64,000 bases of DNA, from assembly GCA_002011215.1 (NCBI GenBank), contig MTML01000100.1, positions 1 through 64,000 on the forward strand, read 5' to 3'. Each line of letters starts with the position of its first letter. Positions within the stretch are counted from its first letter, which is position 1. Made by a program: the position numbers and the translations under genes. The DNA is from Archaeoglobus sp. JdFR-24. GTDB lineage: Archaea > Halobacteriota > Archaeoglobi > Archaeoglobales > Archaeoglobaceae. The notes beneath the pieces are model-generated. The model was not told where the DNA came from, did no database searches, and saw only the letters and a program-made list of their open reading frames with translations. Positions 24,027 through 53,217 of the stretch are shown one piece after another.

Positions 24027-27000
24027 GTAGAAGAGAGAAGCTCCTAAAAATGGAGATTGAAAGATCATATAAATATTTAGGAAATTTAGTTCAACATAAT
24101 CAAGTAGAAGAGAGAAGCTCCTAAAAATGGAGATTGAAAGTGATAACTTCCTGATATTGCTCTAATTTTCATCTTATCGTAGAAGAGAGAAGCTCCTAAA
24201 AATGGAGATTGAAAGAAAAGTAGGTGAAAGTATAACGTATTTCGGGAGAAGAGGTAGAAGAGAGAAGCTCCTAAAAATGGAGATTGAAAGCCCTGGTTAT
24301 CGAAGTTTTTAGCACAGATCACTATTACTCCTCGTAGAAGAGAGAAGCTCCTAAAAATGGAGATTGAAAGTATCACTACATCCCTTAAAAGCAGTTTTGA
24401 GGATTCAAGTAGAAGAGAGAAGCTCCTAAAAATGGAGATTGAAAGTATAACTGCTTTTGCTGTAAAAGTGTTGTGTTCATCAACGTAGAAGAGAGAAGCT
24501 CCTAAAAATGGAGATTGAAAGATGTCTTCAGTTTCGACATAACAGCCCTCTAACACTATGTAGAAGAGAGAAGCTCCTAAAAATGGAGATTGAAAGCCAC
24601 ACCTCCGTTTTTATTATAATGCCCTCATCTGTGTAGAAGAGAGAAGCTCCTAAAAATGGAGATTGAAAGCTCTATCCTGATTGCCTTCCTGGAATCTTTA
24701 GCATCGTAGAAGAGAGAAGCTCCTAAAAATGGAGATTGAAAGCCGCTGAAGTGGGTCGCGGGGTTTATTTCACTGCGTAGAAGAGAGAAGCTCCTAAAAA
24801 TGGAGATTGAAAGGAACTTTATGCTCAGCTTTCACCTGAACAAAAAGCAGTCGGTAGAAGAGAGAAGCTCCTAAAAATGGAGATTGAAAGATCCGAACAG
24901 GATTGCCACTGTCCCTACTCCGAGTAAGTAGAAGAGAGAAGCTCCTAAAAATGGAGATTGAAAGCAATGTCGTGAAGCAACGCAACAAATGACGCCCGTA
25001 ATGGTAGAAGAGAGAAGCTCCTAAAAATGGAGATTGAAAGCAGAGTCCCACTGCCACCATCGAGGGTAGCGAACCAACAGTTTCGTAGAAGAGAGAAGCT
25101 CCTAAAAATGGAGATTGAAAGTTTTCTTTTTCCACACTTGCCTTAATTCCCACAATTCGTAGAAGAGAGAAGCTCCTAAAAATGGAGATTGAAAGAGAAA
25201 TTCCTCGAGACTTATAGCCTCACGAGGTTTTAAGTAGAAGAGAGAAGCTCCTAAAAATGGAGATTGAAAGTTTTTATTACGAATGTTCGGATAAATGGAA
25301 AATTAGTAGAAGAGAGAAGCTCCTAAAAATGGAGATTGAAAGTATATCATCCTCACTCTTATCTGGGAATATCAACTTCGTAGAAGAGAGAAGCTCCTAA
25401 AAATGGAGATTGAAAGTTTTAATAACTTTTTCGACTAACCTAACCTCCATTTTGTAGAAGAGAGAAGCTCCTAAAAATGGAGATTGAAAGGAATAGTAAA
25501 AAAATAATAGACTATAGTTTGGAAAAATTGGGTAGAAGAGAGAAGCTCCTAAAAATGGAGATTGAAAGAGGAATCTAATCCACCATAAATATAAACCCGA
25601 TTAATCAGTAGAAGAGAGAAGCTCCTAAAAATGGAGATTGAAAGGAACCCATGCACTCGCCACCGAAGAACCAGACCACGCGTAGAAGAGAGAAGCTCCT
25701 AAAAATGGAGATTGAAAGTAAGTATGACGACTGTCCTGACGCATTGGAAGGACTTGTAGAAGAGAGAAGCTCCTAAAAATGGAGATTGAAAGTTTGAAAG
25801 TATGTTGTAAGTTTGATGTGCACCCCATTGGTAGAAGAGAGAAGCTCCTAAAAATGGAGATTGAAAGTGTTCTTAAACTCTTCCTGTAGTGATATGTTCT
25901 CCTCGTAGAAGAGAGAAGCTCCTAAAAATGGAGATTGAAAGACCGTTCCACTATCATCTCTCAATCTTAAAATCATCTCGTAGAAGAGAGAAGCTCCTAA
26001 AAATGGAGATTGAAAGTATAGTTCCCAAACCATCGAAGCGATTGTTAGCGAGTAGAAGAGAGAAGCTCCTAAAAATGGAGATTGAAAGTGAACGAGTGGC
26101 TCGCCAGCCACAACAATCCGGTTCGTTGGTAGAAGAGAGAAGCTCCTAAAAATGGAGATTGAAAGACAGATATCATCTATTATTTGAACAAAAGATCAAA
26201 ATTAGGTAGAAGAGAGAAGCTCCTAAAAATGGAGATTGAAAGTTCAAAAAGCAAAATCTTAATTTCGCCCGGCTACGTAGAAGAGAGAAGCTCCTAAAAA
26301 TGGAGATTGAAAGTCGAGTGTTCGTGTGGCCGCGATAGTTGAAGATACCGAGTAGAAGAGAGAAGCTCCTAAAAATGGAGATTGAAAGTGGTGATTTAAC
26401 ACCAACTGCGTCTCTAACTTATAGCGTAGAAGAGAGAAGCTCCTAAAAATGGAGATTGAAAGCGATAAGTTCACAGCATCAGTGGCAACTTCTGGAGTGA
26501 GTAGAAGAGAGAAGCTCCTAAAAATGGAGATTGAAAGCTGATTTCGAAGGTGAAGATGAGGAAAAAACTCAAAAGTAGAAGAGAGAAGCTCCTAAAAATG
26601 GAGATTGAAAGATTACTTTATCTTTCAACCCCATAATACAACACCTCGTAGAAGAGAGAAGCTCCTAAAAATGGAGATTGAAAGATCTTTAATTTTTTCC
26701 CAATCCAAACTTGTAAAATACGTAGAAGAGAGAAGCTCCTAAAAATGGAGATTGAAAGCGGTTACAACACATTTTTTAGATTAGTCTTTGATCGAGTAGA
26801 AGAGAGAAGCTCCTAAAAATGGAGATTGAAAGACGCTGCTGATCCCATGGCAGCGGATGGAAAAGCAATTTGTAGAAGAGAGAAGCTCCTAAAAATGGAG
26901 ATTGAAAGGTTTTGCTTCTGTCCATGCAGGCTTTTTCTTTTTAGGTTGTAGAAGAGAGAAGCTCCTAAAAATGGAGATTGAAAGGGTTTTTTCCGATAGA

Positions 27001-30000
27001 ATCCTCTCTATGTATTCGGTAGAAGAGAGAAGCTCCTAAAAATGGAGATTGAAAGTTGGCAAATACTCTCCTTTCGTGACTCCACCCTCTCCAGGTAGAA
27101 GAGAGAAGCTCCTAAAAATGGAGATTGAAAGCGTTATGCCTCATTGTATTATTGCTTTTGTTGTATTTGTAGAAGAGAGAAGCTCCTAAAAATGGAGATT
27201 GAAAGTAAATCATGTGACTTGGAACAATTATCACGTGTAGGATGGTAGAAGAGAGAAGCTCCTAAAAATGGAGATTGAAAGACTGTCATAAATACGCTGC
27301 CCGCTGGAGTGATGTATTCGTAGAAGAGAGAAGCTCCTAAAAATGGAGATTGAAAGATCGTTGAGTAAGTGTATGGTATTGTTCTCACTTTTGTAGAAGA
27401 GAGAAGCTCCTAAAAATGGAGATTGAAAGTCTTCAAAATCAACATAACCATTTTTAGTTTCACCTTGTAGAAGAGAGAAGCTCCTAAAAATGGAGATTGA
27501 AAGACTATAATAGTATCTGCTTTAACTAATTTAAACTTTTCGTAGAAGAGAGAAGCTCCTAAAAATGGAGATTGAAAGCAATACATTACTATATGATAGG
27601 TAGCTTTTATTACACTGGTAGAAGAGAGAAGCTCCTAAAAATGGAGATTGAAAGTTGTGTTATAGCTATACCCTGTATTCCGTGTCTTCTTGTAGAAGAG
27701 AGAAGCTCCTAAAAATGGAGATTGAAAGGGGATAACAAAAACCCCGTCTGTGTTGGGTTTGAGCTTGTAGAAGAGAGAAGCTCCTAAAAATGGAGATTGA
27801 AAGGATTTTATAACTACCATAACGTTTAAGGTCAAACAACCGTAGAAGAGAGAAGCTCCTAAAAATGGAGATTGAAAGTAAGTAGTATAAGCTTTTCCTG
27901 CTTCCCGCTGAAATGTCGTAGAAGAGAGAAGCTCCTAAAAATGGAGATTGAAAGATAGTTAAATCTCTTTCAAAAGTGTTAACATTTGGGCTACGTAGAA
28001 GAGAGAAGCTCCTAAAAATGGAGATTGAAAGTTTCCACCACCTGACCGCTTCCACTCAGGTTTTACTCCCGTAGAAGAGAGAAGCTCCTAAAAATGGAGA
28101 TTGAAAGTTTGTCACATAACCCATTATCTCACCCTCATTAACACTGTAGAAGAGAGAAGCTCCTAAAAATGGAGATTGAAAGTTTAACAAAGCTTCTGCC
28201 CAATCTTCCACATTCCACAGTAGAAGAGAGAAGCTCCTAAAAATGGAGATTGAAAGGTTGGCAGACTTGATAACAGAAACACATAACGCAAATGAGTAGA
28301 AGAGAGAAGCTCCTAAAAATGGAGATTGAAAGATGGAATCTACAAGCTCGAGCGGTTTAATCCTGAAAAGGTAGAAGAGAGAAGCTCCTAAAAATGGAGA
28401 TTGAAAGTAGCCTGCTCTGGCTGACCCTGCAAGTCCACCGCTGAGTAGAAGAGAGAAGCTCCTAAAAATGGAGATTGAAAGGTTTATGTTTCTGCCGATT
28501 TCAAATAGTATTTTCCTGAGTAGAAGAGAGAAGCTCCTAAAAATGGAGATTGAAAGGAAAAATTTCCACTTGAGAGGGCATTACCCTAACCTGGTAGAAG
28601 AGAGAAGCTCCTAAAAATGGAGATTGAAAGCGTGTCTATACCACTGCGAACAATATGTGTTAAAACTGTGTAGAAGAGAGAAGCTCCTAAAAATGGAGAT
28701 TGAAAGACTTTTTCGTTAAAATATTCTTCCAACAACTTTTTAGGTAGAAGAGAGAAGCTCCTAAAAATGGAGATTGAAAGTTGATTGTCAAACTCTTTTG
28801 CACATATAAGTATAAGTAGAAGAGAGAAGCTCCTAAAAATGGAGATTGAAAGTTTTGTATTTGTCTAAGACTTTTTTGTGTAATATGTTTGTAGAAGAGA
28901 GAAGCTCCTAAAAATGGAGATTGAAAGTATAGTCACATAAATGGCAAATCCACATAAATTCCTGTAGAAGAGAGAAGCTCCTAAAAATGGAGATTGAAAG
29001 AATTTTATAATTTTCGTAATAACATATACTCATTCAGGTAGAAGAGAGAAGCTCCTAAAAATGGAGATTGAAAGATCCCATCATTTGAACAGATTGTATC
29101 AAACAGCTATGTGTAGAAGAGAGAAGCTCCTAAAAATGGAGATTGAAAGTGGTCTTCCTTGAGGAATCTTACAACTTCCTTGATCCGTAGAAGAGAGAAG
29201 CTCCTAAAAATGGAGATTGAAAGATCAGCATGTTAAACAGTTCTATCCACTTCTTCTCATGTAGAAGAGAGAAGCTCCTAAAAATGGAGATTGAAAGTCC
29301 TCCAATTCAGCTTTCCATTCTTCTATTCCACAGTAGAAGAGAGAAGCTCCTAAAAATGGAGATTGAAAGCCTTGAGATCTTTCTCGATGTGGTCGGGTAG
29401 TTTTATGTAGAAGAGAGAAGCTCCTAAAAATGGAGATTGAAAGGTGTTGGAGCGCTTCAATCTCCTCTGATATTTCTTTTGTAGAAGAGAGAAGCTCCTA
29501 AAAATGGAGATTGAAAGATACAAATAAAAGCAAAAAAAAAGAGTATTTTCTGTAGAAGAGAGAAGCTCCTAAAAATGGAGATTGAAAGTAGGGGTATACC
29601 TTCTGGACGGATTATTTCACATTCAGTAGAAGAGAGAAGCTCCTAAAAATGGAGATTGAAAGTTCATATATATCCTTACCATTCCTATCTTTCATCCCTG
29701 TGTAGAAGAGAGAAGCTCCTAAAAATGGAGATTGAAAGGTATTCGAACCAGAAACTGACTCTCCTATTTGCAAATATGTAGAAGAGAGAAGCTCCTAAAA
29801 ATGGAGATTGAAAGCAAAAACTAAAAGAGATCAATGAACAATTGAAAAAAGTAGAAGAGAGAAGCTCCTAAAAATGGAGATTGAAAGGCTTTTCTCTGCT
29901 TCCTGCTATATAGAGCATCCTTTTGTAGAAGAGAGAAGCTCCTAAAAATGGAGATTGAAAGTATAAGAAGTTTAAACGATACATTGAATCTGGTGTAAGT

Positions 30001-31678
30001 AGAAGAGAGAAGCTCCTAAAAATGGAGATTGAAAGCTGAATTCATCAGGAGAATATACTGTCGATTCAACAATGTAGAAGAGAGAAGCTCCTAAAAATGG
30101 AGATTGAAAGCTAAAAATTTTTAAGAGATTAAGCTCCCGTCTCGCCCATGTAGAAGAGAGAAGCTCCTAAAAATGGAGATTGAAAGGAATTTAACAGTAT
30201 TTACTTGACAAATGCAGCAGAATCAGGTAGAAGAGAGAAGCTCCTAAAAATGGAGATTGAAAGGATGTAAAAAAGGCCTTACCTCTCCTGCTAATCCTAA
30301 TGTAGAAGAGAGAAGCTCCTAAAAATGGAGATTGAAAGATTCTTCAGGAACTCGGACTGGATAGTCGAGATATAGTAGAAGAGAGAAGCTCCTAAAAATG
30401 GAGATTGAAAGTAAATATTTATCAAGTCCAAATTTGGATAATATGCCTCGTAGAAGAGAGAAGCTCCTAAAAATGGAGATTGAAAGTATCTTTTTCTTCT
30501 TTTCCCTAATAGCGGTTGCTCTTTGTAGAAGAGAGAAGCTCCTAAAAATGGAGATTGAAAGTCCAAGTTGCAGCACCAACAGGTGCTACATCAGGTAGGT
30601 AGAAGAGAGAAGCTCCTAAAAATGGAGATTGAAAGTTACTACTCACTAAAGAAACTACAGCGGGCAAACGTAGAAGAGAGAAGCTCCTAAAAATGGAGAT
30701 TGAAAGCTGTTTCATTAATTCAAGCTCCTTAAGAGCCTTCTCCGTAGAAGAGAGAAGCTCCTAAAAATGGAGATTGAAAGAGCCCACTGATTTACAATGT
30801 TTGATAGACCAATTGTAGGTAGAAGAGAGAAGCTCCTAAAAATGGAGATTGAAAGGTTTTGTTCATGTTTTAGCGATTTGTAAAATTCCAAGAGTAGAAG
30901 AGAGAAGCTCCTAAAAATGGAGATTGAAAGGCGATTCCGTTTTTGATTGGCTCTAAAATGTCTCCTATAGGTAGAAGAGAGAAGCTCCTAAAAATGGAGA
31001 TTGAAAGAAAGGTATAGAGGAAAACTGGTTTTAGGTAGAGTCGTGAGTAGAAGAGAGAAGCTCCTAAAAATGGAGATTGAAAGAAAATAGGTATTAATGA
31101 ACCTACCTTATATAAACTTGGTAGAAGAGAGAAGCTCCTAAAAATGGAGATTGAAAGGTAAACTGGTGATTTTATTTCTCATAAATCACTCTCAGGTAGA
31201 AGAGAGAAGCTCCTAAAAATGGAGATTGAAAGTGTTGTGTTGAGATCTGTGTTCATCAAGCTTGCGAGCGTAGAAGAGAGAAGCTCCTAAAAATGGAGAT
31301 TGAAAGATACTATACCGTGCCTGACGATGAGAAGTGGACACTAGTAGAAGAGAGAAGCTCCTAAAAATGGAGATTGAAAGTAGATTGATCTCTCGAGTTC
31401 GTCTGGATCATAGCCCGGTAGAAGAGAGAAGCTCCTAAAAATGGAGATTGAAAGAAGCAACCTCCTTTGTAATACTGGTACTTCCCACTCCCGTAGAAGA
31501 GAGAAGCTCCTAAAAATGGAGATTGAAAGAAAGAAGAAGAGGGTCTCTGTAGATGATGATAATCTCCGTAGAAGAGAGAAGCTCCTAAAAATGGAGATTG
31601 AAAGTTGACGGATTGGTCTTCTTAAGCTGGAATCCCTGATAGGTAGAAGAGAGAAGCTCCTAAAAATGGAGATTGAAG
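24027..31678 (+). CRISPR. CRISPR array: 103 repeats of 37 bases, 102 spacers
   Basis: I counted 103 repeat starts from 24027 to 31643. The 37-base repeat begins GTAGAAGAGAGAAGCTCC and ends ATGGAGATTGAAAG. All copies I read look identical except the last (31643-31678), which lost one A near its end. Spacers are 34 to 44 bases, mostly 36 to 39. The 3' end ATTGAAAG is the usual archaeal 8-base crRNA tag, so the plus strand is the crRNA strand. CTCC and GGAG within the repeat can pair weakly around an AT loop, the probable Cas6 site. The degenerate copy marks the oldest, leader-distal end. Confidence 0.98.
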
Positions 31679-37262: not shown

Positions 37263-38381
37263 TTAATTTTTAAATCCATCGGATGAAAATCTGATGGGGG
37301 AGAATTCCTCCATCCCACTACCTTTAAAAATAACCTGGGCAACAATTTCACCTACTGCCGGTCCGATGGTCATCCCTAATCTACCCATTCCATTGGCCTG
37401 AATGAATCCGCGAATTTGCGATTCACCCACAACTGGAAATCCATCCTGTCCAGTATCATAAACACCTGCCCACTGTCTGAGAACCGAGAGCCCTCTCAAT
37501 CTTGGAATCATCTCAACTGCACCTTTTGCATACCTGAAAAGAAACTCCAGCGATGATTTTGTATTTAAATTTTTGACTCCAAGGGCATTATCAACGCCAG
37601 TTTCCCTGCCAAGCACTCCTCCAACAACCTCACCTCTTGCTGACTGACTCAAATAAACCCCATTTGAAACATTAAGTAAATATGGGTCTATAAATGGTTT
37701 GAGACTCTCAATTACGCATATTTCCTCTTTTATAACTCTATTTTCAGATTTGATGCCAGCCAAATTGCTAAATTGATTGCTCCAGGCTCCTGCAGCATTA
37801 ACTATGTAATCCGCCCTTACAACTTCATCGTTAACTTTTACTCCCTCAACTTCTCCATCACCGATTAGGATTCCGTTAACCTCCGCTTCAACCCGTATCT
37901 CAACTCCCAGATTTTTGCACCCTTTCACCAAACCCCAGATCACCGGCCAGGGGAAAATTACACCACCCTCTCCAATTACACCACCAATAACTGATTCGGG
38001 GTTAAATGCCGGCACAATGCTCCTTATCTCGAACGGATCGATTTCTCTAACATCAACACCAGCAGCCTTCTGCAATCTCATTTCTCTTTCCAGTACTGAC
38101 AGATCTTCATCATTCTGTGCAACCTTGATGTAACCATCCTTTCTGAACAGAAAATTGAAATCCACCTCGCTCTGAATGTGATCATAAAGCTCAATACTTC
38201 TTGCAGCCAGTTTGATCAAACTTTCATTGCTGAGTAAAGGGGTGATCCCACCAGAATTTCTTCCTGAGGCTCCGTAGAGAGGATATTTCCTTTCAAATAC
38301 CGTAACTTCCGCACCAGCTCTGGCAAGGTTGTACGCCACAGACAGACCCACAACACCGCCACCAATTACCACCACATTCAT
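37263..38381 (-). CDS. FAD-dependent amino acid dehydrogenase subunit (DAO family)
   Basis: A 372-residue DAO-fold flavoprotein. It opens with the dinucleotide-binding motif VVVIGGGVVGLSVAYNLA and continues with YGASGRNSGGI, typical of glycine/D-amino acid oxidases and of the beta (catalytic) subunit of dye-linked L-proline dehydrogenases. It overlaps the BFD-like ferredoxin gene by 4 bases and is the last of a four-gene operon whose other products are an NAD/FAD subunit and two iron-sulfur proteins. A dye-linked amino acid (proline-type or sarcosine-type) dehydrogenase complex is the best reading; the substrate is not visible. Confidence 0.8.
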   Translation of the reverse strand: MNVVVIGGGVVGLSVAYNLARAGAEVTVFERKYPLYGASGRNSGGITPLLSNESLIKLAARSIELYDHIQSEVDFNFLFRKDGYIKVAQNDEDLSVLEREMRLQKAAGVDVREIDPFEIRSIVPAFNPESVIGGVIGEGGVIFPWPVIWGLVKGCKNLGVEIRVEAEVNGILIGDGEVEGVKVNDEVVRADYIVNAAGAWSNQFSNLAGIKSENRVIKEEICVIESLKPFIDPYLLNVSNGVYLSQSARGEVVGGVLGRETGVDNALGVKNLNTKSSLEFLFRYAKGAVEMIPRLRGLSVLRQWAGVYDTGQDGFPVVGESQIRGFIQANGMGRLGMTIGPAVGEIVAQVIFKGSGMEEFSPIRFSSDGFKN

Positions 38382-38653
38382 TCTCCTTCACCCTCCACCA
38401 GAAGATATAGCGGGACAGGATTGACCGGTGGCCTCTGAGTCGTAATTCCAATTTCTTCAGGTTTTTTGCCAGTTTTCTGGGAAAGTATTCTGAGCACGTG
38501 CATCAGACATCCCTTACCCTGACATGAGCCAGTTGTTGCACCAGTATATCTCTTCAGGCTTTCAATGTCTGTATAGCCCTCTTCGATGGCATGAATTATC
38601 TCCTCCTCCGTCAGATCCTCACATCTGCAGACGATCTTTCTGTTCTTTGTCAT
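38378..38653 (-). CDS. BFD-like [2Fe-2S] protein
   Basis: A 91-residue protein with VCRCEDLTEEEI and GSCQGKGCLMHV, the four-Cys pattern of bacterioferritin-associated-ferredoxin-type [2Fe-2S] domains. In related dehydrogenase complexes this small subunit passes electrons between flavins. It lies between a 4Fe-4S protein and the DAO-type subunit, overlapping the latter. Confidence 0.85.
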   Translation of the reverse strand: MTKNRKIVCRCEDLTEEEIIHAIEEGYTDIESLKRYTGATTGSCQGKGCLMHVLRILSQKTGKKPEEIGITTQRPPVNPVPLYLLVEGEGE

Positions 38654-38657
38654 TCTA

Positions 38658-39167
38658 TCACCCTTCCTGCACCTTTACCGCAGGTTTAATTGCTCTTACC
38701 TCAAAAAGGAGGTCTTTATCGATTTCAACAGTTACTAGAGAGGTTTTATCGTTTCTATGCGGTGGCAAAACCCATCTAACCACCCCTTTACCAACTTCTT
38801 CACCTTTCCGGTTCAAAAGAATGACTTCCTGACCCTTTTCAATCCAAGGAGTAAATTCGTATGAGAGTGTAACATACCCCTTTTCATCCCTGATTCTGAG
38901 CATAAAAATAGCAAGACCCGGACAGACCCGTATACACTTCATACAGCCTGTGCATTTCTCATAATCAACAACAGGAGGATCATTTATGTTATCCATTCTA
39001 ATTGCATCATATTTACACGATTCCAGGCAGGGCGAGCAGGGGATTTCCTGGGGGCATTCGATGTACGCAACTGACTTTTTCCTCAACCTCTCCTCTGAGG
39101 GTTTGGGTGGAAGCTCCTCCAGTTCGAGATATCCTCTAACCAGATAACTGCTTTTCGGTTTGCTCAT
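38658..39167 (-). CDS. 4Fe-4S ferredoxin-type subunit
   Basis: A 169-residue protein. Its Cys are in CPQEIPCSPCLESC and CTGCMKCIRVCPGL, giving two [4Fe-4S] sites, the first irregular. The C-terminal half has beta-rich sequence (KGQEVILLNRKGEEVGKG) of unknown role. It overlaps the large flavoprotein gene by 4 bases and probably relays electrons in the same complex. Confidence 0.82.
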   Translation of the reverse strand: MSKPKSSYLVRGYLELEELPPKPSEERLRKKSVAYIECPQEIPCSPCLESCKYDAIRMDNINDPPVVDYEKCTGCMKCIRVCPGLAIFMLRIRDEKGYVTLSYEFTPWIEKGQEVILLNRKGEEVGKGVVRWVLPPHRNDKTSLVTVEIDKDLLFEVRAIKPAVKVQEG

Positions 39168-40801
39168 GCTTTCGCCTCCTTTGCAACTTCATCGGCGATT
39201 TTACTCGTATTATTGGGATTACCAGAATTAACAACCTCTTCTTCACCAATTATTACTTTTCTGATTCCTGCCACGATTCTTTCACCAAAAGGCCCTTCTC
39301 TGAACTCCCCCAGATCTTTTACTGCTTCTTCTCTCAATCTTACAGTTTCTTCCCCACCATATCCAAGTTTGATTGCCGCATCAATCCCTGCTATTCTTCC
39401 TTCCATCATTGCAGCAGTTGCTTCCTCAATACCGGCAACATCACCAGCCACATAAACCCCGCGCACACTCGTTTCACCATACTTCGTTCTCAATGGAACA
39501 AGTCCTCCAAGCTCAGGAACGAATTTCATCTCACATCCAGCCTGATAAAGAAGCTCATGGGTTGGTGAAAGTCCGACTGCAACACATATGAAGTCACATT
39601 CAATTCTTTTTTCCGTTCCCTTGACAGTACACCAGTTTTCATCCAATTTTGCTATTTCAGCACCCTCCACCTTCTTCTTTCCAATTGCTCTTACAATCGT
39701 GTGACCTGTGTAAATGGGAATTCCGAGCCTCCTGACTTTCGCGGCATGAACAAAATATCCACCTATTCTCGGCATAGCCTCGACAATTGCCGCAACATCA
39801 ACTCCTGCTTGCAGAAGCTGATAGGTTAAAATCAGTCCAACATTTCCAGACCCCACAATCAAACCACGGTTTCCGGGTTTAATTCCGTAAACATTCATTA
39901 GCGTCTGGACGCCTCCAGCACCATAAACCCCTGGTAAGTCATTGTTTTCAAAAATCAGTGTTCTTTCATACGCTCCAGTAGCTATAATAACCTTTTTTGG
40001 AAGGACTTTGAGAAGCTTCTTTTCCCTTTCAACTGCACCAACAACACCATTGTAAATGCCAAAAACTTTTGTCTCGTATCTGACATCAATATTTCCCAGT
40101 TGATTGAGTTCATCCTTAAGAATCTGGGCTATTCTTATACCTCTCGTCCCTGCTCTATGCCTTCCACTTCCAAAAAACCGATGAGTCTGTTTAACGAGCT
40201 GTCCCCCCAGGAAAGGATTTTCATCCATCAAAACAACCTTTGCTCCAGCTCTTGCTGCAGAAATCGCTGCGCTCATACCTCCTGGACCTCCGCCAACCAC
40301 AGCAACATCAGTTTTAATCTCTTCATAAGCTCCTTTACCTTCAAAGATAGTCTTAGGAGGGCTTCCCATCCCAGCAAACTTCCTTATCTGCTTTGTAACA
40401 ACTTCCCTTAAAAATTTAGGTCTGTTGAATTTTTTATAATGAGATCCATGGGGGTAAAATCTGTCAACAAGGGAATCCAGAACCCCATAAACGTCCTTTT
40501 CAGCATCAGGAAACGAGTTCTGTGTTCTCACATTCATTCCATCCCTGACATAGACTTTGCAAACCCTCACATTGGGTATCCCATCAATTTCCATCATACA
40601 CGAAGAGCATTTTCCAATGGCACAGAAGAATCCTCTTGGTCTGTGAAATCTGAAGGATCGGCTGAATATTCTCACTCCAGCTGCATAAAGGGCTGCTGCT
40701 ACAGTTTCACCTTCATAAGCCGTGACAGGTTTACCATTAAAATATATTATAAGCTCTCGACCTCTTTTAAATTCAACAATTGGATGTTCTGTAAGTCTCA
40801 T
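39164..40801 (-). CDS. Dehydrogenase alpha subunit: [2Fe-2S] plus NAD/FAD oxidoreductase
   Basis: A 545-residue protein. The N-terminal 100 residues form a [2Fe-2S] domain of the sarcosine oxidase alpha / HcnA type (FFCAIGKCSSCMMEI). An FAD-binding motif follows (VAVVGGGPGGMSAAISAARAG), then an NAD-binding motif (GLIVGSGNVGLILTYQLL) and a GVYVAGDVAG segment. Related proteins are alpha subunits of dye-linked proline dehydrogenases, opine oxidases and hydrogen cyanide synthase. ATG 40801 is preceded by GAGAGGTG; the frame is open further upstream. First gene of the operon. Confidence 0.83.
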   Translation of the reverse strand: MRLTEHPIVEFKRGRELIIYFNGKPVTAYEGETVAAALYAAGVRIFSRSFRFHRPRGFFCAIGKCSSCMMEIDGIPNVRVCKVYVRDGMNVRTQNSFPDAEKDVYGVLDSLVDRFYPHGSHYKKFNRPKFLREVVTKQIRKFAGMGSPPKTIFEGKGAYEEIKTDVAVVGGGPGGMSAAISAARAGAKVVLMDENPFLGGQLVKQTHRFFGSGRHRAGTRGIRIAQILKDELNQLGNIDVRYETKVFGIYNGVVGAVEREKKLLKVLPKKVIIATGAYERTLIFENNDLPGVYGAGGVQTLMNVYGIKPGNRGLIVGSGNVGLILTYQLLQAGVDVAAIVEAMPRIGGYFVHAAKVRRLGIPIYTGHTIVRAIGKKKVEGAEIAKLDENWCTVKGTEKRIECDFICVAVGLSPTHELLYQAGCEMKFVPELGGLVPLRTKYGETSVRGVYVAGDVAGIEEATAAMMEGRIAGIDAAIKLGYGGEETVRLREEAVKDLGEFREGPFGERIVAGIRKVIIGEEEVVNSGNPNNTSKIADEVAKEAKA

Positions 40802-41061
40802 TTCCACACCTCTCGAGGAACGAAATTTCAAATACTCTCATAACTTCACCTTTGTAAACTAACAGATCGTTCTGCTAATAGATTACTCAGCCAAATTTTC
40901 AGTAAAACAGTATCAATTATTTAAGTTTTACCAAATTGTCTAATATTGTCTATAAAGCATTTCTTCATTTTAAATAATTTAAAAAATCGAAGACCTATTT
41001 TTACTTTGTCAAATAAGTAAAATCGTAAAGTTTTATAGATTAAAAAGTGTTGTTTTTGGTT
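40802..41061. promoter_or_regulatory. Divergent promoter region
   Basis: AT-rich DNA between the dehydrogenase operon (minus) and the Hdr-Flx operon (plus). On the plus strand AAAGTTTTATAG (about 41027-41038) lies about 25 bases before ATG 41062 and would give a leaderless transcript. No clear operator was found. Confidence 0.5.
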
Positions 41062-49798: not shown

Positions 49799-50104
49799 TT
49801 TTTAATTAATTTTATAAATTTATAATTTTTATGGTTAATTATCTTTTTGCAGTTTAATAACATAACTTTTTGGTGATGTGAGGTTAAGTTCAGGAGGAAA
49901 GATATAGAATTCTCCCAAAATTTCTTCGAACCCCGAACGTTTCATCATCATTTTTCTTACGACTCAACCCTCTTATTTATGGATCCATTCTATCCAGATC
50001 TGTTGATAATTTTTATCCAAATTTGCAATATACCATAACATATAAACAATATTCCATCCCTACACTCCATAAACCAAAATAAAGGCTTTAAGAGGTGATA
50101 GCGG
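49799..50104. promoter_or_regulatory. Intergenic region and promoter of the peptide cluster
   Basis: Mostly AT-rich with no gene. A TATA-like box (ACATATAAACAAT, about 50038-50050) and, 41 bases later, the ribosome site GAGGTGA (50092-50098) precede the peptide ATG at 50105, so the peptide mRNA probably has a short leader. GGAGGAAAGAT at 49893 is not followed by a usable frame. Confidence 0.5.
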
Positions 50105-50221
50105 ATGGAAGAAGGCACAAAAGGTATAAGAGTGTTAGAATGCGGTCTTATGGGGGTTGAAGAACCGAATTTCTGTGGACTTTGTGGTGTATTTTGCGCC
50201 CCGCTGAAAAAATTGATATGA
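50105..50221 (+). CDS. 38-residue Cys-containing peptide, candidate RiPP precursor
   Basis: ATG 50105 to TGA 50221 codes for a 38-residue peptide. The N-terminal part (MEEGTKGIRVLECGLMGVEE) is leader-like and the C-terminal part is NFCGLCGVFCAPLKKLI. Cys are at 13, 24, 27 and 31; the three in the C-terminal part are spaced C-x2-C-x3-C. A GAGGTGA ribosome site lies 6 bases before the ATG. The next gene, 34 bases on, is a radical SAM/SPASM protein, and an ABC transporter follows; this is the usual setting for a thioether-type (sactipeptide or ranthipeptide) precursor. No known precursor family is recognised. Coding is supported by the ribosome site, the Cys pattern and the context; chance cannot be fully excluded for so short a frame. 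Confidence 0.72.
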   Translation: MEEGTKGIRVLECGLMGVEEPNFCGLCGVFCAPLKKLI

Positions 50222-50255
50222 ATAAAAACTATATTCATTTTATTTTGGTGAGTGA

Positions 50256-51584
50256 ATGGTTATGCCTCATGGCAAAAAATGGTCGAAATACAATTATAAT
50301 GTCGAAGTTGATGGTAAGTTAGTCATTTTTAACGGATTGTACAGACATTTATTAGTAATAGACAAAAAAACCTTTAAAGAGATCGATAATATACTAACAA
50401 ACACGCTGACAAACAACAAAGGATTTGATGATAAACTTAGGGAGAAGATTGAATATCTAACAAGATTAAATATAATTATCGATGATTACATCGATGAGGC
50501 TTTAATGGCTAAATTCTTAATAAACAGATGGAAATACACCACAGGTGTTTTTTCCCTCTTTATAAGTTATACTTCTGCTTGCAACCTATCGTGTAGATAT
50601 TGCTATCAGGATAATTCAAAAAATTCCTCCTATCTCAGTGAGAAAAAATGGAACATTCTTTATGACTTCATTGAGAGCAAAATATCAAGAGATGACACCA
50701 AATCTCTGAGTATAGCATTGTTTGGGGGAGAACCTCTTTTAAATTACAAAGTCTTGTTGAAAAGTGTAAAGGACATAAAATCCCTCGAGCATATTGGAGT
50801 TTCTTCTGACATCACACTAATAACTAATGGAACGTTACTTAACAAGAATATAGCAGAGGAGCTTTTTCCATATATGGATGCTTTCCAAATAACTATAGAT
50901 GGCACAAAGGAGTCCCATGATAGATTAAGGCCTTATAAAAATGGATTTGGAACTTACGACGTCATATTGAGCAACCTTATAGAGAATTTAGAGGAATTAG
51001 AAAACAAAGTGCAAATTCGTTCGAATATAGATGAAAGTAACTATCAAGACGTCATCAAGTTGTTAGATGAGTTAAGCTCATTGGGATTGCAGGATAGAAT
51101 AAGGAGTTACGATGCTGTAGCCATTTATGCATCTCAGAAGATGGTAAAAAGTAAGGGTTTTGAGCATCTGATAACTCCAAACAAAGTGAAACTTGTTATC
51201 GAGGTATTAAAATATGCTACCAAAAAGGGATTTAAGATCTCAAAAGGATTCGTAAATGCGCTCTGTATTGGAAGTTTAATGAATGGATTTGCAGTTGATG
51301 AAAATCTGAACATTTACAAATGCCCAGGTTTTTACTATGATATTCCTGACGGATACATCGATCATAATGGAAAATTGATTATAACTAATAATAGGTTCTA
51401 TAAGTTTGTTTTGGAGGAATCCGCTTGTTTTGGAACATGTGAGTTTGCTCCGATATGTTATGGTGGATGCAAATGGATGAGGGGGAGCAAAAAGATTCAC
51501 TGTCCAAAACCGGTATTTATTCCCTACCTTTCTGAGCTTATAAAATATTACGCGATTTCCAATTATCCGGAGGAGATCAGATGA
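50256..51584 (+). CDS. Radical SAM/SPASM peptide maturase
   Basis: A 442-residue protein. The N-terminal 90 residues (NYNVEVDGKLVIFNGLYRHL onwards) have the beta-then-helix pattern of a precursor recognition element. The radical SAM cluster is CNLSCRYC (Cys109, Cys113, Cys116), with the GGEP motif at 157-160 (LFGGEP) and ITIDGTKESHDRLRP after it. The C-terminal SPASM region has seven Cys (337, 356, 391, 395, 401, 405, 416), enough for two auxiliary [4Fe-4S] clusters. Such enzymes form thioether or carbon-carbon cross-links in ribosomal peptides. ATG 50262 is an alternative start. Ends in a 4-base overlap with the ABC ATPase gene. Confidence 0.88.
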   Translation: MVMPHGKKWSKYNYNVEVDGKLVIFNGLYRHLLVIDKKTFKEIDNILTNTLTNNKGFDDKLREKIEYLTRLNIIIDDYIDEALMAKFLINRWKYTTGVFSLFISYTSACNLSCRYCYQDNSKNSSYLSEKKWNILYDFIESKISRDDTKSLSIALFGGEPLLNYKVLLKSVKDIKSLEHIGVSSDITLITNGTLLNKNIAEELFPYMDAFQITIDGTKESHDRLRPYKNGFGTYDVILSNLIENLEELENKVQIRSNIDESNYQDVIKLLDELSSLGLQDRIRSYDAVAIYASQKMVKSKGFEHLITPNKVKLVIEVLKYATKKGFKISKGFVNALCIGSLMNGFAVDENLNIYKCPGFYYDIPDGYIDHNGKLIITNNRFYKFVLEESACFGTCEFAPICYGGCKWMRGSKKIHCPKPVFIPYLSELIKYYAISNYPEEIR

Positions 51585-52483
51585 GCTCAGTGATCAGGGT
51601 AGAAAATATAACCAAAATATTCCCCAATGGAATCGTTGCCAATCGAGATATCACGCTTTATGTGAACGCAGGTGAAATCGTGGGGATAGTTGGCCCGAAT
51701 GGAGCTGGCAAGACCACTCTTATAAGACAAATACTGGGTCTTCTCAAATCCACAAAGGGTAAGATAAGCATCTTGGGGGAGGATTCTGCAAACTCAAAGA
51801 AAGTAAAATATATAGGATATGTCCCCCAGTATCCCCTTTTCTTCCCTTCACTTACAGTAAAGGAGGTCATAGAATTTATGCTCAGATTCAACAATATGAA
51901 AGAATATGATAGAATATCTGAAACAATTCTCGAGACAGTAGGATTAGGTGACTCCAGAAACATGGCTGGATATCAATTATCTGCTGGACAGCGAAAGCTC
52001 CTTTTATTTGCCATGGCCATCAGTAAAAATCCGCAAATACTTATTCTCGATGAACCAACAAGTATGGTCGATCTCGTCCATAAGAAAATTATATGGGATA
52101 TAATCGAGAATTTCAATGGAGAAGGTGTCCTGATAGCCAGCCACGATATGAATGAGGTTAGAAAACTGTGTGATAGGATTTATTTGCTGGTTGACGGGAG
52201 GATAATCGCAAAAGGTACTCCTGAAGAGATTTCCTCGATAATTGAGATGCCTGTGGAGATTAGTTTTACGGTTAAAAAATCAAAGAGTGCGGAAAAATTA
52301 CTCACTGAAAAAAACATCGAGTATGAGAAGCGATTTAATGTTTTTAGCATATCTTTTCAAAATATTGACCATTGCATAAATTTTGTGAAAGTTTTGAATG
52401 ATATTGCAGGTATAACATCGTTGCATGTAGATGCACCGTCTTTCGAGAAAGCTGTTTATAAACTGCTGAAGGAGGTATCATGA
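51581..52483 (+). CDS. ABC transporter ATP-binding protein of the peptide cluster
   Basis: A 300-residue ATPase of the CcmA/NatA type. Walker A is GPNGAGKTT, the Q-loop is VPQYP, the signature is LSAGQRK (Gly of the usual LSGGQ is Ala), and Walker B is LILDEPTS. The C-terminal 80 residues match the extension found in drug and bacteriocin exporters. It overlaps both the maturase and the permease genes by 4 bases, so all are one operon. It probably exports, or protects against, the modified peptide. Confidence 0.9.
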   Translation: MSSVIRVENITKIFPNGIVANRDITLYVNAGEIVGIVGPNGAGKTTLIRQILGLLKSTKGKISILGEDSANSKKVKYIGYVPQYPLFFPSLTVKEVIEFMLRFNNMKEYDRISETILETVGLGDSRNMAGYQLSAGQRKLLLFAMAISKNPQILILDEPTSMVDLVHKKIIWDIIENFNGEGVLIASHDMNEVRKLCDRIYLLVDGRIIAKGTPEEISSIIEMPVEISFTVKKSKSAEKLLTEKNIEYEKRFNVFSISFQNIDHCINFVKVLNDIAGITSLHVDAPSFEKAVYKLLKEVS

Positions 52484-53217
52484 TGCAAAGGATGAGAAAG
52501 ATTCTTATCTCCGCCCTTATGGAATTCAAAAACCTAAGACTTTTCAAACTTCAAATAATTATAAGCTTAGGAATTATTCCTTTTTCCTATCTTTTCGTTG
52601 TTCTCCTATATGCAAATGGAAGTGATATCCCATACCTGCTTTCCGGATTTTCTGTGATCTCTCTCTTTAGTTCCCTAATAACTTTACTCTCGTTGAGAAT
52701 AAGCAATTTGATGGAACCTGAGGTTGTTGAATTATATTCTACCCTCCCCGTCAATTATAGTGATATTATTATCTCATACACTCTTGTATATGTGATCCTC
52801 GCACTTCCACAGTCTTTTCTCTCCCTAGGGCTGTCGGCTCTTAACGTAAATTCGGTAAATCTGTGGCTCGTTGGCACAGGTGTGGTGTTGGGCATAATTC
52901 TTTTTGGTTTAATGGCTATATCATTAGGCTTGTTTATAAACAATCCATATAAAGCCCAGGGAGTGGTTCCACTTATTGGATGGCTAATGCTCTTACTTTC
53001 ACCAGCATACTACCATATAAAAAATTATTATATGCTTGCTGTACTGATGGTTAATCCTGTCACCCATGTGCTAAACATAATCAGAGCTGGACTGGGCGAT
53101 GGTGGATTGAGATACGTGCACCCTCATATTTTCTATTTGATCGTTTTATCTATCCTTCTCAGTGTATACATCGGAAGAAGGTTTAAGAATGTTTATATGC
53201 TTGAAAAATTATACTAA
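52480..53217 (+). CDS. ABC-2 type permease of the peptide cluster
   Basis: A 245-residue protein with about six hydrophobic helices, for example IISLGIIPFSYLFVVLLYA near 28-46 and GTGVVLGIILFGLMAISLGL near 132-151. It carries no recognisable enzymatic motif and pairs with the ATPase upstream. ABC-2 permeases of this size export lipids, drugs or peptides. Last gene of the operon. Confidence 0.85.
   Translation: MMQRMRKILISALMEFKNLRLFKLQIIISLGIIPFSYLFVVLLYANGSDIPYLLSGFSVISLFSSLITLLSLRISNLMEPEVVELYSTLPVNYSDIIISYTLVYVILALPQSFLSLGLSALNVNSVNLWLVGTGVVLGIILFGLMAISLGLFINNPYKAQGVVPLIGWLMLLLSPAYYHIKNYYMLAVLMVNPVTHVLNIIRAGLGDGGLRYVHPHIFYLIVLSILLSVYIGRRFKNVYMLEKLY

What the first reader, a model, noticed from the sequence alone, without database searches (positions are those of the whole stretch)
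50105..53217. Undescribed archaeal RiPP-type cluster: Cys peptide, radical SAM/SPASM maturase, ABC exporter
Seen: a 38-codon frame with ribosome site, then a radical SAM/SPASM protein with CxxxCxxC and seven C-terminal Cys, then an ABC ATPase and ABC-2 permease, the last three genes overlapping by 4 bases each. Known: radical SAM/SPASM enzymes next to short Cys peptides usually install thioether links (sactipeptides, ranthipeptides), and an ABC pair exports the product or gives immunity. Inferred: this is a complete archaeal peptide natural product or signalling system. No protease gene is seen, so removal of the leader would need a host enzyme or the transporter.
Basis: partly seen in the sequence, partly recalled or inferred. 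Interest (0 to 1): 0.88.

Follow-up and report, generated by a model that had tools for sequence, protein, structure and literature searches.

The report
Conserved radical-SAM modified peptide gene cassette
This is a compact four-gene set that most likely makes and exports a small, chemically modified peptide; it belongs to a peptide family that appears undescribed and occurs both in archaea and in bacteria.

Summary
In detail: a 38-codon frame, a radical SAM/SPASM maturase, an ABC ATPase and an ABC-2 permease, the last three overlapping by 4 bases. The peptide is real. Seven further loci (six genomes from the class of a Thermococcus MAG, one Ignavibacteria MAG) hold a homologous peptide before the same maturase and ATPase; one contig ends before the permease. 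With database hits there are 55 distinct peptides, 46 containing EPNFC, including Marinitoga piezophila and Hungatella proteins. In 115 genomes the peptide profile hits six places, all beside this maturase, and nowhere else. None of 53 members matches NCBIfam; the maturase is under the cut-off of all 25 best models shown. Its model fits the thioether maturase CteB best. Most likely this is a RiPP whose core Cys are cross-linked and whose ABC pair exports the product or protects the producer. Bond type and function are inferred. It is a new precursor family of a known kind of system.

The parts
50090..50099 (+). ribosome-binding site AAGAGGTGAT of the peptide gene
   Evidence: read directly; a purine-rich site of this kind stands before the peptide ATG in all 8 loci (sequences)
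50105..50221 (+). precursor peptide, 38 aa, MEEGTKGIRVLECGLMGVEEPNFCGLCGVFCAPLKKLI
   Evidence: homologous peptide in 8 loci and 55 distinct peptides in all; low dN/dS in homologues
50132..50146 (+). conserved leader motif VLECG (V10-G14; family VLExG)
   Evidence: L11 and E12 nearly invariant and G14 invariant in 35 aligned peptides; C13 is not conserved
50162..50203 (+). conserved core EPNFCGLCGVFCAP (E20-P33)
   Evidence: F23, C24 and F30 invariant, E20 P21 N22 C31 nearly invariant in 35 aligned peptides
50222..50246 (+). T-rich spacer between peptide and maturase, possible partial terminator
   Evidence: T 52%, longest T run 4; 5 of the 7 archaeal loci (two of them identical here) have runs of 6-7 T, and the bacterial locus has a hairpin of -18.2 kcal/mol; function inferred
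50256..51584 (+). radical SAM/SPASM peptide maturase, 440-442 aa
   Evidence: Pfam PF04055 E 7.7e-14; AlphaFold2 model pLDDT 89.7; nearest solved fold 5WHY/5WGG
50580..50603 (+). CxxxCxxC motif of the radical SAM cluster (C109, C113, C116)
   Evidence: invariant in 27 aligned sequences
51264..51503 (+). seven-Cys SPASM region (C337 to C416)
   Evidence: C337 C356 C391 C395 C401 C405 invariant and C416 at 90% or more in 27 aligned sequences
51581..52483 (+). ABC transporter ATPase, 300 aa
   Evidence: PF00005 E 4.3e-32; an ATPase frame follows the maturase in all 8 loci
52480..53217 (+). ABC-2 type permease, 245 aa
   Evidence: Pfam ABC2_membrane_3 30.3 bits, just under its cut-off of 31.6; a frame of 236-245 aa follows the ATPase in 7 of 8 loci, and in G087 the contig ends; L001 and L002 copies are 36% and 42% identical

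Best explanation
The cassette makes a ribosomally synthesised, post-translationally modified peptide. The leader of the 38-aa precursor, a hydrophobic stretch ending in VLExG, docks on the N-terminal domain of the radical SAM/SPASM enzyme. The enzyme uses SAM-derived radical chemistry and its auxiliary iron-sulfur clusters to install cross-links from one or both conserved core cysteines (EPNFC...FC) to nearby residues, most likely as thioethers. The ABC ATPase/permease pair exports the product and/or keeps the producer immune. No leader protease is in the cassette, so trimming, if it happens, needs a host enzyme. Shown: a real conserved peptide, its tie to this maturase, the predicted enzyme fold, and the cassette. 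Inferred: docking, cross-link type and site, export or immunity, biological role.
For: Peptide, maturase and ATPase in the same order in 8 loci in five genomic settings, with the permease in the 7 whose contig reaches it. In 115 genomes the peptide profile hits six places, each beside the maturase, in the six genomes that hold this maturase type (five intact, one truncated). 55 distinct peptides, 50 with EPNF followed by Cys within two residues and 46 with EPNFC. Low peptide dN/dS. CxxxCxxC and six SPASM Cys invariant in 27 aligned sequences. Confident AlphaFold2 model, nearest to 5WHY/5WGG (CteB; name recalled and in PMC8172795 passages), with ChlB, anSME and TigE close. By sequence too 5WGG is the best of three solved matches (E 1.3e-14). 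In one genome (G041) a 681-base in-frame deletion removes maturase residues of about 185-411 while peptide, ATPase and permease frames stay open, as expected if the transporter is useful without the product.
Against: No product has been seen. ChlB, anSME and TigE, nearly as close in fold, are not known here to make thioethers, so the fold does not settle the bond. Strong conservation of the core across distant phyla is unlike fast-evolving bacteriocins. The permease model is poor (pLDDT 55.8) and was not used. The G041 deletion is a single case. Whether any flanking gene is a protease was not tested throughout.
Confidence: 0.65

Rival explanations
1. A RiPP cassette in which the maturase makes a different change: a carbon-carbon bond at the conserved Phe residues (three-residue cyclophane at F-C-N), an epimerisation, or a TigE-like change; the cysteines stay free, form a disulfide or bind metal.
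For: Two Phe (F23, F30) are as conserved as the first Cys and more than the second; FCNP is the commonest form (23 of 55 peptides). TigE and ChlB rank with the best structural matches.
Against: The first core Cys is invariant in the 53-member alignment. The best sequence and fold match among solved structures is a thioether enzyme. The residue after FC is Gly in L002, which has no beta carbon for a cyclophane.
Confidence: 0.2
2. A peptide-derived conserved molecule rather than a weapon: a redox or metal-binding cofactor or a signal, exported by the ABC pair.
For: EPNFC and VLExG are kept between archaeal loci, an Ignavibacteria MAG, Marinitoga and Hungatella, which is unusual for bacteriocins; Cys-rich products can bind metal (general knowledge).
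Against: Patchy distribution: 6 of 115 genomes; 1 of 395 genomes in the phylum of G002 at E up to 1e-70. Low G+C relative to flanks and a tract shared between two genomes look like an accessory, mobile trait. Part of the conservation may serve maturase recognition.
Confidence: 0.2
3. The short frame is a chance open frame and the maturase acts on something else.
For: The frame is only 38 codons and no library model knows it.
Against: Homologous peptides at the same place in 8 loci; database peptides not in the query at E 6.4e-13 and 7.4e-13 (P0125, P0126); low dN/dS.
Confidence: 0.02

Closest known systems
CteA/CteB thermocellin system (SCIFF ranthipeptides; PDB 5WGG, 5WHY; the link of these entries to CteB is recalled)
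   Different: SCIFF peptides average six Cys in a 45-residue region (PMC8172795, passages); here 2-4 Cys follow EPNF. The SCIFF maturase model scores 82 bits against a cut-off of 425
NCBIfam CefA/CefB (Cys-every-fifth peptide and maturase, NF038107/NF038108)
   Same: best NCBIfam model for the maturase (179.8 bits); a CefA-like peptide is found in the same class of genomes (L029)
   Different: far below the cut-off of 600; the peptide is not a Cys-every-fifth repeat; separate branch of the tree
Geopeptide maturase TIGR04280 and TIGR04463 family
   Same: second and third best models (173.2 and 163 bits)
   Different: below cut-offs of 400 and 525; 0 of 53 peptides match any NCBIfam model
Bacillus subtilis epipeptide (Yyd/Epe) and Skf systems
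   Same: peptide, radical SAM enzyme and an ABC pair in one cluster (skfE/skfF for export/resistance: PMC8172795, passages; the Yyd gene order is recalled)
PapB/freyrasin ranthipeptides (NF047865)
   Same: radical SAM/SPASM maturase of a Cys peptide (125.5 bits)
   Different: cut-off of 340 not reached; the CxxxD pattern of freyrasin (recalled) is absent from the window's peptide

Membership tests
radical SAM/SPASM RiPP maturase system (general) | CxxxCxxC motif and multi-Cys SPASM region in the maturase | tested here: met
   C109/C113/C116 and six SPASM Cys invariant, seventh at 90% or more, in 27 aligned sequences
radical SAM/SPASM RiPP maturase system (general) | conserved precursor gene beside the maturase | tested here: met
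   8 of 8 loci of this type; in 115 genomes the peptide profile hits only beside the maturase
radical SAM/SPASM RiPP maturase system (general) | N-terminal RiPP recognition element | tested here: inconclusive
   model residues 7-93 form strands and helices of the expected kind, and the 5WHY alignment spans model residues 10-442; the domain was not searched alone
ranthipeptide | thioether from Cys sulfur to a beta or gamma carbon | not testable with these tools
   needs mass spectrometry and NMR of the product
sactipeptide | thioether from Cys sulfur to an alpha carbon | not testable with these tools
   needs mass spectrometry and NMR of the product
CefA/CefB | maturase over the NF038107 cut-off of 600 bits | tested here: not met
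   179.8 bits
CefA/CefB | Cys-every-fifth precursor (NF038108) | tested here: not met
   0 of 53 peptides match any NCBIfam model at E up to 1; the L029 peptide does (50.9 bits, cut-off 30)
geopeptide system | maturase over the TIGR04280 cut-off of 400 bits | tested here: not met
   173.2 bits
SCIFF | maturase over the TIGR03974 cut-off of 425 bits and six-Cys precursor | tested here: not met
   82 bits; 2-4 Cys after EPNF
PapB ranthipeptide maturase | maturase over the NF047865 cut-off of 340 bits | tested here: not met
   125.5 bits
epipeptide (Epe/Yyd) | protease gene in the cluster (feature recalled) | tested here: not met
   none between peptide and permease in the 7 loci long enough to show it; flanking genes were not all annotated

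The most novel reading that the evidence does not exclude
The EPNFC peptides are a cross-domain family whose product is under constraint on its exact structure: a peptide-derived redox or metal-binding molecule, or an interspecies signal, shared by thermophilic archaea and anaerobic bacteria and spread by horizontal transfer, rather than a fast-diversifying antibiotic.
Probability: 0.2. Interest if true: 0.85.

Novelty: new variant of a known kind. Interest (0 to 1): 0.62.

Why it matters
Few archaeal RiPP products are known; a 2025 survey notes the scarcity of identified products while predicting ranthipeptide and sactipeptide clusters in archaea (PMC12144867, passages). This is a minimal four-gene set with a very short precursor and a precise sequence signature. 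That makes it easy to express and to mine for, and it offers a direct test of which bond an archaeal radical SAM/SPASM maturase makes and of whether archaea share peptide signals or weapons with bacteria.

Tried and rejected
Chance frame: rejected. CefA/CefB, geopeptide, SCIFF and PapB membership: rejected by curated cut-offs (one search shows the best 25 of 84 matching models, all below cut-off; searches agree). Pfam gave seven weak, unrelated matches over 53 peptides (best E 0.014). Viral contigs: top row 25% identity; a capped list, 80 kept of 331 relatives. Plasmids: 4 records, at most 28%. PADLOC: viperin- and ATPase-type matches only. The permease model was too poor to search. Peptide search in the class of G002: 10 of 245 genomes at E up to 0.1; only G002 (7.5e-16) is convincing. 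The other nine have E 0.012-0.097, and none of them is among the 12 genomes with a maturase match at E up to 1e-40. Sigma-70-type promoters: 16 found against 14.9 in shuffles. The tree of 87 maturases puts the window in a 51-row clade (97/86, midpoint root) that also holds Marinitoga and Clostridium proteins; order inside it is mostly unresolved.

Literature: searches. No paper holds EPNFC, NFCGVFC, NFCGLC, PNFCGFC or EPNFFICG. Most subscription papers and preprints are not held, so 'undescribed' is limited to that. Passages only were seen of PMC12144867, PMC4158269, PMC8172795 and PMC8326336; other papers as listings.

The organism of the window was not identified. No genome is held for it. 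Archaeal origin rests on a Csa3 match and on gene content read by eye.

Full report
What is there. The window holds, on the + strand, a 38-codon frame with a ribosome site (50105-50221), a radical SAM/SPASM protein (50256-51584), an ABC ATPase (51581-52483) and an ABC-2 permease (52480-53217); the last three overlap by 4 bases. Pfam finds Radical_SAM and ABC_tran above cut-off and an ABC-2 permease model just below it. Upstream lie frames with iron-sulfur Cys motifs, read by eye as oxidoreductase subunits (not scanned); downstream is a protein with a below-cut-off match to methanogenesis marker 16. Nothing ties either side to the cassette.

The peptide is real. A scan of genome contigs returned two relatives of the maturase, in an Ignavibacteria MAG (L001) and a Thermococcus MAG (L002), at 40% and 39% identity. 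Both have a short frame at the same place that shares VLE.G and EPNF followed closely by C-G-L-C. A profile search of 115 genomes, the class of the Thermococcus MAG, found this maturase type in five genomes (E 1.4e-158 or lower; one is L002's own, and some of their proteins were in the profile) and a truncated copy in a sixth, G041. All six have the peptide. The peptide profile, which contains those six peptides or near copies, gave exactly those six places in the 115 genomes and no other at E up to 0.1. In the class of G002, 10 of 245 genomes matched at E up to 0.1, but only G002 itself is convincing. Peptide dN/dS was 0.06-0.19 in the 4 of 6 pairs that could be computed; two of these share a peptide, and the peptide is short, so the values are rough.

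The family. Two protein-database searches gave 34 and 50 hits at E up to 10; peptides placed in each query match by construction. In the first, 30 hits were not identical to a query row, 29 of them at E 0.011 or lower. The second added 18, 16 of them at E 0.0034 or lower. With the loci there are 55 distinct peptides: 50 have EPNF followed by Cys within two residues, 46 have EPNFC exactly, 53 fit the leader pattern, and 26, 26 and 3 have 3, 2 and 4 Cys after EPNF. Spacing from the first Cys to the next varies, most often two or three residues. Named members are Marinitoga piezophila KA3 Marpi_0927 and a Hungatella hathewayi protein. For five maturase hits a peptide hit has the same longest-contig length and a shared source (P0003/P0136, P0005/P0127, P0010/P0135, P0053/P0150, P0030/P0161), which suggests, without proving it, that they lie on one contig; a sixth pair (P0050/P0126) has equal length but different sources and is not counted. 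None of 53 members scanned matches NCBIfam at E up to 1.

Signs of mobility and use. Cassette G+C is 5.6-12.5 points below the fetched flanks in six genomes (the flank of G002 is only about 3 kb) and 2.8 points below the whole window here. The eight loci fall into five settings; G045, G078, G041 and G087 share an upstream neighbour. G041 and G087 are 98-100% identical from just before the peptide to about 440 bases into the ATPase, while the flanks are 75-91% identical, which points to recent exchange; G087's contig is only 3,308 bases, so assembly error cannot be excluded. In G041 an in-frame deletion of 681 bases removes about half of the maturase and leaves peptide and transporter frames open. 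Spacers between peptide and maturase are 40-57% T in the 7 archaeal loci, and the bacterial locus has a strong hairpin there; this fits partial termination favouring precursor over enzyme, but the window's own spacer has no T run over 4.

Relatives with other peptides. In six loci of a sister maturase group with longer Cys-rich peptides no ABC pair follows the maturase; instead, in five of the six an ABC-type ATPase frame (one of them short) lies on the other strand just upstream. So a transporter may be a wider part of such systems, but only in the EPNFC type is it in the operon.

Mechanism and limits. The best reading is a RiPP with Cys thioether cross-links and an ABC export or immunity pair. 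I put about 0.95 on a true peptide-maturase pair, about 0.6 on thioethers, and about 0.7 on export and/or immunity; these are judgements. Against the antibiotic reading stands the strong conservation of the core between archaea and bacteria. Against a general cofactor stands the patchy distribution.

Novelty. It works like known radical SAM/SPASM peptide systems, but it fails the tested cut-offs of each named family. The precursor family has no NCBIfam model and no trace in the searched literature. It is therefore a new variant of a known kind.

Noticed in passing
L031/L148 (G031), L017, L018, L019, L020, L022, L027: A sister family in the class of the Thermococcus MAG: Cys-rich peptides of about 53-77 aa with a leader like EF.I(I/L)E.GS followed by GN, beside a related maturase; an ABC-type ATPase frame lies on the other strand upstream in five of six loci looked at, and the gene after the maturase in L148 has a Peptidase_M1 domain. 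The two such peptides scanned have no NCBIfam match.
   Followed up: partly
L139 8253-9984 (G041): Maturase with a 681-base in-frame internal deletion, peptide and transporter frames open; the tract is nearly identical to G087 while the flanks are not.
   Followed up: partly
L153 2780-5426 (G022) and L158 548-3463 (G023): Tandem pairs of radical SAM/SPASM maturases; G022 has ten matches to the maturase profile at E up to 1e-40.
   Followed up: no
L025 and L026 (G041, G066): A short peptide with PPNFYGCPNLC upstream of a distant maturase, followed in G041 by an 8-TM protein; it recalls EPNFC, but the maturase lies on a long branch of the tree.
   Followed up: no
window 24027-31604: CRISPR array with 102 matches to the repeat family CRISPR-DR47; Cas1, Csm1 (type III-A) and Csa3 genes lie on the same side.
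   Followed up: no
window 37263-40831: Genes with below-cut-off matches to sarcosine oxidase alpha and beta families, with two small genes between.
   Followed up: no
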